Positions 19,951 to 23,174 of a stretch of DNA of 64,000 nucleotides are shown here, piece by piece (the first letter of the stretch is position 1; every line of letters begins with the position of its first letter). Source of the stretch: Adineta ricciae (Eukaryota > Rotifera > Eurotatoria > Adinetida > Adinetidae). Made by a program: the position numbers and the translations under genes. The stretch spans positions 1 to 64,000 of the forward strand of contig CAJNOJ010000093.1 of assembly GCA_905250025.1 (NCBI GenBank), read 5' to 3'. The notes beneath the pieces were generated by a model. The model made no database searches. It was not told the DNA's origin and worked only from the letters and a program-made list of their open reading frames with translations.

Positions 19951-20872
19951 ATAAGGCGATCAATTATTTATTTGTTTTAAAGAGAAAAAAAAACGCAAAA
20001 CAAAAGGTGATAAAGATAAAAGTCACAATAAAAATTTGGAAAAATAAAATCTACATTCAATTGTGTTTCTTTGTCGACCTAATGACTAATGTATTGAACA
20101 AAATGGAAAGCATAGTTCATCGGGATCGAGTTGACTTCGTGCGAAATTAAGAAAGATTCGTTCTAATGTAGTTTGACTGACTGTGTAATTTTCAAAGACA
20201 ACAGCGCATATTATATCATCAAATCAATGACATGCTCTCGCGTTCTTTGATCTGTGTTCATCGAGAGAAAAAACATCACATAGATAAGAGAAACGTTTGA
20301 AAACTACTTAGATGTGTGTGAGGGTTGTGTTTTCTTTAAGATAAAATGATTTATTGGCTAATTTATCGTTTGAAGATATTTTTGATCATGAATTTAAATT
20401 CAGTACAGAGAATTCGTTTGATTCGTGGAACATACTAAGTTGTACACGATTTTCTATTCAACCGATATTAATCGTGAGTGTTCCTATAATATTCATCTGT
20501 CTTCTAGCTGAATGTGTTTATTTACACCATTTAGTAGCACAGAAAGTGCAGCTAATAACAGATCAGCTTCATTAGCATACATATGTACAGAGTTTTCGTG
20601 GGCTTCTCTCCATTGACTATGCGGAAAGGATGAGGGTGAGGGTGGACTAGTAAATTATGGGCTTGAGCAATCGACCTGAGATCTCAGGACATATTTACTT
20701 ATATATATACTTAAATGTATCCTGATGTCTCAAGTCGGTTGCTCAAGTCCTTATCTAATTAATTAGATCTACTCCCATTCGTCGCCACATCACTCGGTCT
20801 TCAAAAATAAAATGCAAATGTTACCAAAATTATTATATAAGGCAAAAAACGGGCTGGGATAAAATCCATCAC
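19951..20872 (-). pseudogene. Decayed copy of the ABCA 3' end, interrupted twice
   Basis: Sequence at 19951-20186 aligns with 26484-26765, the last ABCA exon plus about 150 bp of its 3' flank, in the same orientation. The block resumes at about 20510-20625 (matching 26765-26880) and ends with a short match near 20857-20872 (26893-26905). Relative to the intact gene it lacks 39 bp of the last exon and carries many substitutions. It is split by about 320 bp of unrelated sequence and by a hairpin element. Because the copy includes the 3' flank and keeps its orientation, it is a segmental duplicate and not a retrocopy. It cannot encode the ABCA C-terminus. Confidence 0.82.
20640..20790. mobile_element. 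Hairpin (MITE-like) insertion in the ABCA pseudogene
   Basis: Arms at 20659-20698 and 20711-20750 are reverse complements at 32 of 40 positions, separated by a 12-nt AT-rich loop. Weaker complementarity extends outward (taaattat against aattagataa). The intact ABCA copy has no counterpart, so this is an insertion. It has no open frame. The shape suits a miniature inverted-repeat element, but target-site duplications are not evident by eye and the family is unknown. Confidence 0.6.
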
Positions 20873-20893
20873 TTTGGAAAAAGTTTATAGATT

Positions 20894-21958
20894 TTATGAA
20901 CTCACAATTTCTGGCGGTGGCATCCAAATTGGCCGACGACCGATCTTAATTTCGCAATTACAATTGCCGCTATCATGTTCAAGAGAATAGCACATCTGTC
21001 CTCGATGGCAGAAGAACTCTACACTAAGTTTAACAATATAAATATTGTTCTGTCGATCAAAAAAGTGATCATCAATACCGAATTGTGCTAGTCGAGCAAT
21101 AAGATATTCATCTTCTACATGATGCCATGATATCCATGACACGTCAGCGCCAATTAGCTCGTCTTCATTATCATTCGGCATTGTATGGATTTCGAAGATA
21201 GAGCTAGAATTTGCAGGGTCAGAATCAGGACATGCAAAAAATAATGCCACATCTCTATCTCGGCTTGTACTAATAAACGTGCCACATTTAAAAAATGCAT
21301 TCTTTTTTGTTCGACTTCCATAATCAAAGTTATTCAACTCATCAGGATCAATTATAATCCTAGCTAAACCATGATAGACAGTAATCGGTCGGTTGACATA
21401 ATCATGTTTATTCAAACAACAAATAGCGCTATTCAAAGCTCGACCGAAAATTGGCCACTTTTGTGTATAAGTACACAGGTTACCATTCGTTACATCTTGC
21501 ATTGAGAATAAACGTTCGTCTTCTTTTAATTTCTCGTGCAAAATGGTATTTGTATAAAGCATCACTGCTGACATTTGAATATTAGATAATGGTGAGCCCA
21601 TCTGCCTGTGTCGATCATGCTCCATTCTTTGCCTAACACGATCGCAAAATACCGAGCTCCATATATCTCCGTAACCATTTCGTTTAACTTCCTCTTCTAA
21701 GTCGTCATTATTCGCTTTGCCAGCCCAAAAGTTTCGATTGTATTGATGAGCACGTGATCTATTGCAGTGTTGATATGCTGACTTAAACTTTTTTGATTGG
21801 AAATTATCTTCAACTGTCATTCCACCACGACGCCCTGGATGAAAGTTCATTGAACAATGATCTATGTCGTCGAGCCGATAAGTATTATCCTCAACAAGTC
21901 GAGAGAGTATCGGACACTGACTACCATATTTGCACAGGAGCTTCTTAGATGGCAACAT
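20894..21958 (-). CDS. PBZ-like zinc finger fused to an ADP-ribosyltransferase domain
   Basis: Intronless, 354 residues. The N-terminus (residues 5-42) has LCKYGSQC then HCSMNFHPG. C9, C15, H34 and H40 suit a C2H2 zinc site like the poly(ADP-ribose)-binding PBZ finger, with a longer middle than usual. Residues about 165-350 resemble arginine-type mono-ADP-ribosyltransferases: ITVYHGLARI (strand 1), GTFISTSRDRDVALFFA (S-T-S motif), SSIFEIHT, and EDEYLIA giving an E282-x-E284 pair. The reaction would transfer ADP-ribose from NAD to a protein side chain or other acceptor. The first catalytic position, normally Arg in YRG, is His here, as in PARP-type HYE enzymes. No signal peptide, so probably intracellular. 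Bdelloids are known for many acquired genes; acquisition of this one is inference. The 3' end lies 22 bp from the pseudogene block. Confidence 0.78.
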   Translation of the reverse strand: MLPSKKLLCKYGSQCPILSRLVEDNTYRLDDIDHCSMNFHPGRRGGMTVEDNFQSKKFKSAYQHCNRSRAHQYNRNFWAGKANNDDLEEEVKRNGYGDIWSSVFCDRVRQRMEHDRHRQMGSPLSNIQMSAVMLYTNTILHEKLKEDERLFSMQDVTNGNLCTYTQKWPIFGRALNSAICCLNKHDYVNRPITVYHGLARIIIDPDELNNFDYGSRTKKNAFFKCGTFISTSRDRDVALFFACPDSDPANSSSIFEIHTMPNDNEDELIGADVSWISWHHVEDEYLIARLAQFGIDDHFFDRQNNIYIVKLSVEFFCHRGQMCYSLEHDSGNCNCEIKIGRRPIWMPPPEIVSS

Positions 21959-23174
21959 GTTTTCTTATTCTAATGACAATATAAAGCGACGGTGTGATAA
22001 ACAAACTCGATTCCTAACAATTTCTTTTAAAGTTTCAGACTGATGGCAAAATGAGAGCAGTAACTTGATCAAATTCTGTGTAACCTTTTTGTTTTATAAA
22101 GACCTTTGGCAATTGATAAAGAGTATTTATGTTACTTAATTGTACAAAATAAGGAAGTGTGTGTGTGATAATAAGCTCGATAGATCTTGATAAATATAGA
22201 TGGAACAAAGGAAATGACGATTTGACAGGTAGTGAAGAAATTCGACCATATCGACAAGAATATTAATCAAGTCTGACAAGCAAGTTGGGAAAAGTTAAGC
22301 AAAATAATCGGTGTGAAGCTAGCACGAACAAACGATCTGTTAGCTAAAAACTTTTTTTATTGAATGTGTCCCGTCCATGCAAACTATACACCATTCGACT
22401 CAGAATAATGAATATAATCATTGAAAATACTTAAAGGAACACTGATGCAACGATTTTCATTAGAATCAATTGAAATACTTCCGGATTTTCATCCCAATCG
22501 ATCATTTCCGTAAGAAAACCAACGAATTTTTCCTCAAATCAAATGTTAAACCAATATCTAGCAAAACTCCATTGAAAACTCCTCAACTGATATAGAACCC
22601 ATCAGTAAATGCTGTTAAATTTGAAGGTAAAATAATCGTTGGTAAACAATCGATGAGTTCTGTTGAGATGAATGAAGAATAACAGATTGTATCCACACGA
22701 TACCACACCCTCAGTTCCACTTCCATTCCAAGCTTGACGACATTTCAATTCATTCTTTTTTAGATTCAAGAAAATTATTACAAATATCATGAGAAGTTGT
22801 TTCATTTTTAAGGCAGAGATAAGAAAAACGAATTTTCAGATGTCGACTTGTTCCATGCTTCGTATCAAGTTTAAAAGGTATGTTGATAAAATGTCGAAAA
22901 GAGCGAGCGTGAAGTTTTGTGAGTGAGGTTTGAAGTGGATGGATCCACTTCTCAGTAGTAACGAACACCTAAGTCATAAACTTTCGGCTTTCAAAATTTC
23001 TAATTCAAATGCAATAGATATCTCGATTCAACTTGTCATAGACAAGTGCAATCAAATTCCTTGCATCACTACTCTGTTGATTATTTATAAATTATGCATC
23101 GTACGAAAACATCAAACTATACCATCAACGAGAAAAGTATTGCTGTTCTTTGCTAAAAAAAGTGATGACTTTCT
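21959..23174. other. Intergenic, with one doubtful small ORF
   Basis: Upstream of the ADP-ribosyltransferase gene. A 67-codon minus-strand frame at 22602-22805 starts with a hydrophobic stretch (MKQLLMIFVIIFLNL) and has two Cys in a short Gly/Ser-rich segment, so a small secreted peptide is possible. No splice partner or homologue is apparent. Nothing else is seen. Confidence 0.35.

What the first reader, a model, noticed from the sequence alone, without database searches (positions are those of the whole stretch)
20894..21958. ADP-ribosyltransferase with a YHG catalytic motif behind a PBZ-like finger
The domain has the STS and ExE motifs of arginine-type transferases, but the first triad residue is His (VYHG) as in PARP-type enzymes. 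An N-terminal C9/C15/H34/H40 cluster resembles the poly(ADP-ribose)-binding finger. A reader plus a hybrid-motif writer in one intronless protein would be a new ADP-ribose signalling arrangement, next to duplicated and inserted DNA.
Basis: partly seen in the sequence, partly recalled or inferred. Interest (0 to 1): 0.78.

Follow-up and report, generated by a model that had tools for sequence, protein, structure and literature searches.

The report
Rotifer ADP-ribose enzyme with zinc finger
A rotifer gene joins a stretched version of a zinc finger known for gripping ADP-ribose chains to an enzyme domain that probably attaches ADP-ribose and whose usual first active-site amino acid has changed; it may read and write the same chemical mark, but this has not been tested.

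Summary
The ORF at 20894-21958(-) encodes 354 aa with a finger C9/C15/H34/H40 and an ADP-ribosyltransferase (ART) domain with VYHG, FISTS and EDE motifs. One paralogue in the same genome (45% identical) keeps both parts in one frame. [quoted passage not shown] Pfam's PBZ model misses it, and without allowing for the insert it is not significant. His196 occupies the first triad column: 45 of 48 aligned ART rows have Arg, 3 have His. R200 is not the missing Arg. Ligase genes followed by one or two PBZ fingers suggest a bdelloid. PBZ fused to PARP, PARG and ligase E is in print; PBZ with a toxin-type ART was not found in ten searches of open-licence papers. Best reading: the finger docks on ADP-ribosylated proteins and the transferase modifies neighbours. 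Whether the His enzyme is active and the finger binds ADP-ribose is unknown; structure prediction never started (queue full at 17 attempts). New variant of a known kind.

The parts
20894..21958 (-). Uninterrupted ORF, 354 aa (P0001), stop codon included
21821..21934 (-). Long-loop PBZ-derived CCHH finger, residues 9-46 (C9, C15, H34, H40, HPGRRGG)
   Evidence: 22 of 37 aligned residues (59%) identical to the paralogue
21881..21913 (-). 11-residue insert (residues 16-26) between the second Cys and Y27-R28; 10 residues in the paralogue
   Evidence: none of the in-frame GT..AG stretches listed would restore a canonical finger
21608..21820 (-). Linker, residues 47-117, 26 of 69 aligned residues (38%) identical to the paralogue
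21020..21607 (-). ADP-ribosyltransferase domain, residues about 118-313
   Evidence: Pfam ART 17.1 bits, below its cut-off 22.3; own-genome profile of 11 ARTs 58.8 bits, best of 1000 shuffles 5.8; profile of 30 other ARTs 16.7 bits, best shuffle 7.6
21371..21373 (-). His196 of VYHG, in the first triad (Arg) column
21263..21271 (-). STS motif, residues 230-232
21107..21115 (-). ExE motif, E282-D283-E284
20897..21019 (-). C-terminal tail, residues 314-354, with CHRGQMC...CNC; the paralogue has a shorter, unlike tail without Cys
   Evidence: residues 51-354 hold no second PBZ-like finger by score
22302..22406 (.). Arm-like stretch of a small inverted-repeat element, upstream of the gene
   Evidence: many copies, mostly 78-91% identical, often in facing pairs about 250 bases apart
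22405..22907 (.). Repeat with 84-85% copies at C333 and C319

Best explanation
A bdelloid rotifer enzyme made of a PBZ-derived zinc finger with a lengthened loop and a toxin-type (exoenzyme/arginine-type) ADP-ribosyltransferase domain in which the first triad residue is His: an H-S-E transferase. Shown here: the two parts in one frame, kept together in a paralogue; the finger's descent from PBZ; the His in the Arg column. Inferred: zinc is held by C9, C15, H34 and H40; the finger docks the protein on poly- or mono-ADP-ribosylated proteins, as PBZ does in APLF; the transferase, with His taking over NAD contact and E284 as catalytic glutamate, then adds ADP-ribose to nearby targets. This would tie a second ADP-ribosylation step to sites already marked by PARPs, for example at DNA damage.
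For: Paralogue with the same order, 45% identical, finger 59%. Finger: split profile z 8.8 and 11.9 for the two proteins, 0 of 20,000 shuffles each; still 0 of 5000 each with canonical fingers only (15) or without the C99 arrays (33). An unforced alignment keeps C, G, C, H, H invariant in 15 of 15 fingers, and the profile of those 15, which include both long-loop fingers, finds APLF in the PDB at 8.8e-17. C99 arrays bridge it: DKNDPNHCSKYFHP against DKNDIDHCSKYFHP in the paralogue. ART domain; the paralogue passes the Pfam cut-offs for ADPrib_exo_Tox (38.5 bits) and ART (31.1). Ser and ExE kept in both. Setting: a genome rich in ADP-ribose proteins: 150 ART stretches (only 150 of 553 candidates were scored), 125 PARP stretches (exon pieces, not genes), 34 PBZ places. 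No obvious signal peptide (by eye).
Against: No activity, binding or expression data. Arg to His could inactivate; human ART3 (K-L-V) and ART4 (G-S-E) also lack the Arg (PMC7955679, passages). The paralogue keeps 1 of APLF's 3 contact residues. Pfam PBZ matches neither finger. Without allowing for the insert, HMMER gives this finger only 7.2 bits and 15 of 10,000 shuffles score higher (the paralogue ranks first with 22.3 bits). Pfam ART is below its cut-off for this protein. No structure model.
Confidence: 0.45

Rival explanations
1. Pseudo-enzyme: the Arg to His change ended NAD transfer, and the protein is now a binder of NAD, ADP-ribose or a partner, aimed by the finger.
For: Arg is kept in 45 of 48 aligned ART rows; human ART3 and ART4 show that the first residue can be lost in this family (PMC7955679, passages); His sits on two separate branches, one of them a single gene.
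Against: His is the residue PARPs use at this place, and Ser and both Glu of ExE are kept in both paralogues although they are only 45% identical overall, which is not expected if catalysis were lost long ago.
Confidence: 0.3
2. Active transferase, but the finger no longer reads ADP-ribose: the insert turned it into a protein- or RNA-binding module.
For: The 11-residue insert lies in the stretch that carries the ADP-ribose contacts; the paralogue has H, Y, D where APLF has Y, Y, R; the insert keeps I, RL and D in both.
Against: This protein has Y, Y, R at the aligned places; the same genome uses variant PBZ fingers together with a PARG domain, so variants can stay in the ADP-ribose trade.
Confidence: 0.2
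3. A horizontally acquired or element-borne cargo gene: a toxin-type ART carried in by a mobile element, with a finger added by chance and no host role.
For: Repeats directly upstream; toxin-type ART match in the paralogue; a similar FLYWCH-like stretch on C64 has nothing like the ART within the next 3.4 kb.
Against: No relative found in prokaryote, viral, phage or plasmid scans (the peptides used in 17 and 18 all come from the finger half); some neighbouring ORFs look like ordinary animal genes (by eye); synteny with C64 was not shown beyond that stretch.
Confidence: 0.05

Closest known systems
PBZ domain (Pfam PF10283; APLF, CHFR, SNM1A)
   Same: C-x5-C and H-x5-H halves, CxYG, HPG; Y, Y and R at the aligned ADP-ribose contact places of APLF in the window protein
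   Different: 18 residues between second Cys and first His (6 in APLF, 7 in the DPxHC type of this genome); not recognised by the Pfam model
R-S-E clade ADP-ribosyltransferases (PF01129 ART, PF03496 ADPrib_exo_Tox)
   Same: Domain profile, STS motif, ExE motif
   Different: His in place of Arg; N-terminal zinc finger; no obvious signal peptide (by eye)
PBZ-PARP fusions (Entamoeba, Dictyostelium, Capsaspora, lancelet; PMC4245714, passages)
   Same: PBZ reader and ADP-ribose writer in one protein
   Different: The writer there is an H-Y-E PARP domain, here an ART-type domain
Bdelloid ligase E with C-terminal PBZ (PMC10665377 and PMC6264785, passages) and A. vaga PARG with PBZ repeats (PMC4245714, passages)
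   Same: Bdelloid enzyme with PBZ added, probably as an aiming part
   Different: Ligase or glycohydrolase, not transferase

Membership tests
PBZ (PF10283) | Four ligands C-x5-C ... H-x5-H | tested here: met
   by sequence; zinc binding itself not tested
PBZ (PF10283) | Short spacing (about 6 residues) between second Cys and first His | tested here: not met
   18 here, 17 in the paralogue
PBZ (PF10283) | Match to the Pfam model | tested here: not met
   no match for either finger
PBZ (PF10283) | Descent from PBZ by profile, with the insert allowed for | tested here: met
   0 of 20,000 shuffles; 0 of 5000 with two reduced profiles; split chosen
PBZ (PF10283) | ADP-ribose contacts Y381, Y386, R387 of APLF | tested here: inconclusive
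   Y11, Y27, R28 aligned here, H, Y, D in the paralogue; with canonical fingers only, Y27 falls in the insert
PBZ (PF10283) | Binds poly(ADP-ribose) | not testable with these tools
   needs a binding assay
R-S-E clade ART | Domain profile | tested here: met
   58.8 bits on a profile of 11 ARTs, best of 1000 shuffles 5.8; Pfam ART only 17.1 bits, cut-off 22.3; paralogue over both cut-offs
R-S-E clade ART | Arg as first triad residue | tested here: not met
   His196
R-S-E clade ART | Ser of STS and ExE | tested here: met
H-Y-E clade (PARP) | His as first residue | tested here: met
H-Y-E clade (PARP) | Tyr as second residue; PF00644 match | tested here: not met
   Ser in its place; ART was the only Pfam family at E up to 10
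Any ADP-ribosyltransferase | NAD-dependent transfer | not testable with these tools
   needs an assay

The most novel reading that the evidence does not exclude
A reader-writer in one chain built from two lineages: a PBZ-type finger that recognises PARP-made ADP-ribose and recruits an H-S-E transferase, so that poly-ADP-ribose marks at damage sites are followed by a second, chemically different ADP-ribosylation. As far as I know it would be the first enzyme shown to run ART-type chemistry with a PARP-type first residue.
Probability: 0.2. Interest if true: 0.75.

Novelty: new variant of a known kind. Interest (0 to 1): 0.5.

Why it matters
Bdelloids survive desiccation and radiation, and PBZ-bearing repair proteins and PARPs are part of that story in print (PMC6264785, PMC10665377, PMC10809525; passages read). 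A finger-transferase fusion with His in the triad gives a direct test of whether an ART with His in place of the clade's Arg is active, and of how far a PBZ loop can be stretched. If active, it would link ART-type and PARP-type ADP-ribosylation in one animal cell.

Tried and rejected
Relatives outside this genome: none found. Genome contigs: 50 stretches matched a pattern, 0 confirmed. Viral contigs: 106 stretches, 0 confirmed. Phages by tblastn with the window protein only: none. Plasmids by tblastn with the paralogue only: none. The four peptide patterns all lie in residues 27-58, so they do not exclude distant bacterial ARTs.

The idea that the 11-residue insert is a small intron read as coding: rejected. 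The script listed GT..AG stretches of 20-89 bases that overlap the insert and could drop out in frame: 5 in the window gene, all touching the second Cys codon; 7 in the paralogue, 6 touching the second Cys codon (one of them leaves a stop) and one removing the stretch with the first His (judged by eye).

CCCH finger (tristetraprolin-like) as rival for CxYGxxC: the following C-x3-H of that type is absent (spacing recalled), although the A3 profile gives CCCH chains weak scores, 1.4e-4 and 1.7e-4 at best.

PBZ+ART elsewhere in this genome: comparing the 34 PBZ places with the 150 ART places by eye, only C357 has both within 3 kb; there the PBZ exon stands before a PARP-like frame and the ART lies in a further frame behind a stop. 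Among what I looked at, only the two long-loop proteins hold both parts in one frame.

PHROGs and NCBIfam: nothing for this protein at E up to 1; weak ART-toxin matches for the paralogue. PDB by sequence: nothing or one unrelated chain at E 1.1. The 98-base palindrome 3' of the gene gave no other match in the genome. Empty site: the C64 match is a FLYWCH-like stretch (domain name by eye); the ABC-transporter-like ORF has no C64 hit, so an empty site was not shown. Sigma-70 promoter scan: no excess (7 found, 7.8 expected), and not meant for animals.

Structure prediction: the same request was answered 'busy, 100 jobs waiting' (17 attempts), so no model and no fold search was made.

Full report
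What is there. The window is G000:C93:1-64000 of a 130-Mb genome in 1033 contigs. The ORF at 20894-21958 on the minus strand encodes 354 aa. Its stop-free frame of 356 codons is far longer than the longest of 300 shuffles of window 20001-23000 (150).

The organism. One search lists 11 places with the Pfam ligase core. Near three of them PBZ places lie on the same strand, about 0.5-0.65 kb downstream: one at C28, two at C78, two at C392 (ligase scores there are modest, 30-34 bits). One and two PBZ fingers at the C-terminus mark ligase E copies A and B of bdelloid rotifers (PMC10665377, passages). I take the genome to be a bdelloid's; that is an inference, no name was given.

The transferase. 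Pfam ART gives 17.1 bits, below its cut-off of 22.3, so by the library alone the domain is doubtful. A profile of 11 ARTs of the same genome, none with His, gives 58.8 bits; the best of 1000 shuffled sequences gives 5.8. A profile of the 30 other ART rows gives 16.7 bits, best shuffle 7.6. The one close paralogue (C580:662-1804, 381-codon frame, 45% identical) passes the Pfam cut-offs of ADPrib_exo_Tox (38.5 bits) and ART (31.1). Aligned with 46 other ART rows, VYHG falls on VYRG: 45 of 48 rows have Arg and 3 have His, namely this protein, the paralogue and L007. The 48 rows are some of the ARTs for which loci were fetched, far fewer than the genome holds; L004 and L076 are one gene and several others are near-copies. 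Ser of STS and both Glu of ExE are kept. R200 lies four residues on and has no counterpart in the paralogue. In the tree the two finger proteins form one clade (100/98) and starred branches force at least two origins of His; branches are long and the tool warns that joins may be false.

The finger. Pfam PBZ finds 34 places in the genome but not this one, and residues 1-63 alone match no Pfam family. Still, a profile of 37 PBZ-like fingers of the genome, without the two proteins, matches in two collinear pieces: profile 1-7 on C9-C15 and profile 8-25 on Y27-R44, with 11 residues between (10 in the paralogue). As local matches these pieces are weak in the window protein (3.8 and 7.2 bits; 15 of 10,000 shuffles beat 7.2), while the paralogue's 22.3 bits beats every shuffle. 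Scored with such a split, the window protein gets 41.4 and the paralogue 62.4; the highest of 20,000 shuffles for each are 16.5 and 18.5. I fixed the split, and the fingers were picked by a pattern with G at the fourth position. With only 15 canonical fingers, or without the C99 arrays (33 fingers), 0 of 5000 shuffles reach the score. An unforced MAFFT alignment of 15 fingers places the same insert and keeps C, G, C, H, H in all 15. The profile of that alignment, which includes both long-loop fingers, finds APLF first in the PDB (8.8e-17) and CCCH chains weakly. The bridge is a pair of arrays on C99 with fingers such as CRHGNDCWDKNDPNHCSKYFHP. The finger is the best-kept of three parts against the paralogue: 59%, against 38% for the linker and 45% for the ART domain.

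Can it read ADP-ribose? In APLF, Y381, Y386 and R387 make the contacts (PMC6264785, legend passage). Their aligned places hold Y11, Y27 and R28 here, but H, Y and D in the paralogue. With the canonical-only profile, Y27 falls in the insert. So such residues are there, but their geometry is unknown.

Surroundings. Upstream lie a piece like the arm of an inverted-repeat element (22302-22406) and a repeat (22405-22907) with two 84-85% copies. Downstream is a 98-base palindrome (20656-20753) without another match in the genome. Some neighbours look like ordinary animal genes (by eye: an ABC transporter, a channel-like protein). The genome is crowded with ADP-ribose proteins: 150 ART stretches scored of 553 candidates, 125 PARP stretches, and PARG with arrays of variant PBZ fingers. 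PARG with PBZ repeats is in print for Adineta vaga (PMC4245714, passages).

How it probably works. The finger holds one zinc and docks on ADP-ribosylated proteins; the transferase adds ADP-ribose nearby. The docking and the chemistry are inferred. The main rival is a pseudo-enzyme: human ART3 and ART4 lack the first Arg too (PMC7955679, passages). I give 0.45 to the active reader-writer in some form, 0.3 to the pseudo-enzyme, 0.2 to an active enzyme whose finger binds something else, 0.05 to a cargo gene without a host role.

What is known. PBZ with a PARP domain is in print for Entamoeba, Dictyostelium, Capsaspora and lancelet (PMC4245714, passages). PBZ with ligase E is in print for bdelloids (PMC10665377, PMC6264785, passages). 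For PBZ with an ART-type domain, or for 'H-S-E', I found nothing in searches. These cover open-licence papers only; of the papers listed I looked into six, by passages (PMC6264785, PMC4245714, PMC8529158, PMC7955679, PMC10809525, PMC10665377), and saw the rest as listings. Aravind's 2015 survey of the superfamily is known to me here only as cited in PMC7955679.

Verdict. The arrangement is a new variant of a known kind: PBZ-aimed enzymes. It deserves a bench test; its function is not shown.

Noticed in passing
L065 and L066 (G000:C357:50500-55500 and 63500-68000): Two copies, about 13 kb apart, of a canonical PBZ exon followed by a PARP-like stretch and then a VYRG ART frame.
   Followed up: partly
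L067, L068, L069 (G000:C365, C248): Long open frames with arrays of variant PBZ-like fingers of differing loop lengths; a microbial-type PARG domain in L067 and L069 (L068 not scanned).
   Followed up: partly
L079 and L080 (G000:C99): Arrays of DPxHC-type PBZ fingers, about 15 kb apart, each before a hydrolase-like frame (by eye).
   Followed up: partly
L007 (G000:C36:338575-340002): A second, separate ART with VYHG in place of VYRG; no long-loop finger by the pattern.
   Followed up: partly
window 20656-20753: 98-base palindrome with 49-base arms, 80% complementary, no spacer, no other match in the genome, just 3' of the gene.
   Followed up: yes
window 20897-21019 (residues 314-354): Cysteine-bearing C-terminal tail CHRGQMC...CNC, not shared by the paralogue; not PBZ-like by score.
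   Followed up: partly
L070:2544-3842 (-): Neighbour of the paralogue: frame with membrane-like stretches and a PARP-like GFGIYFARS stretch; resembles Gig2-type proteins as I recall, no Pfam match over cut-off.
   Followed up: no
L025 and L026 (G000:C38, C14): A canonical PBZ finger that seems split by a short intron between CPYGK and GSTCYRKNPEHF (by eye).
   Followed up: no
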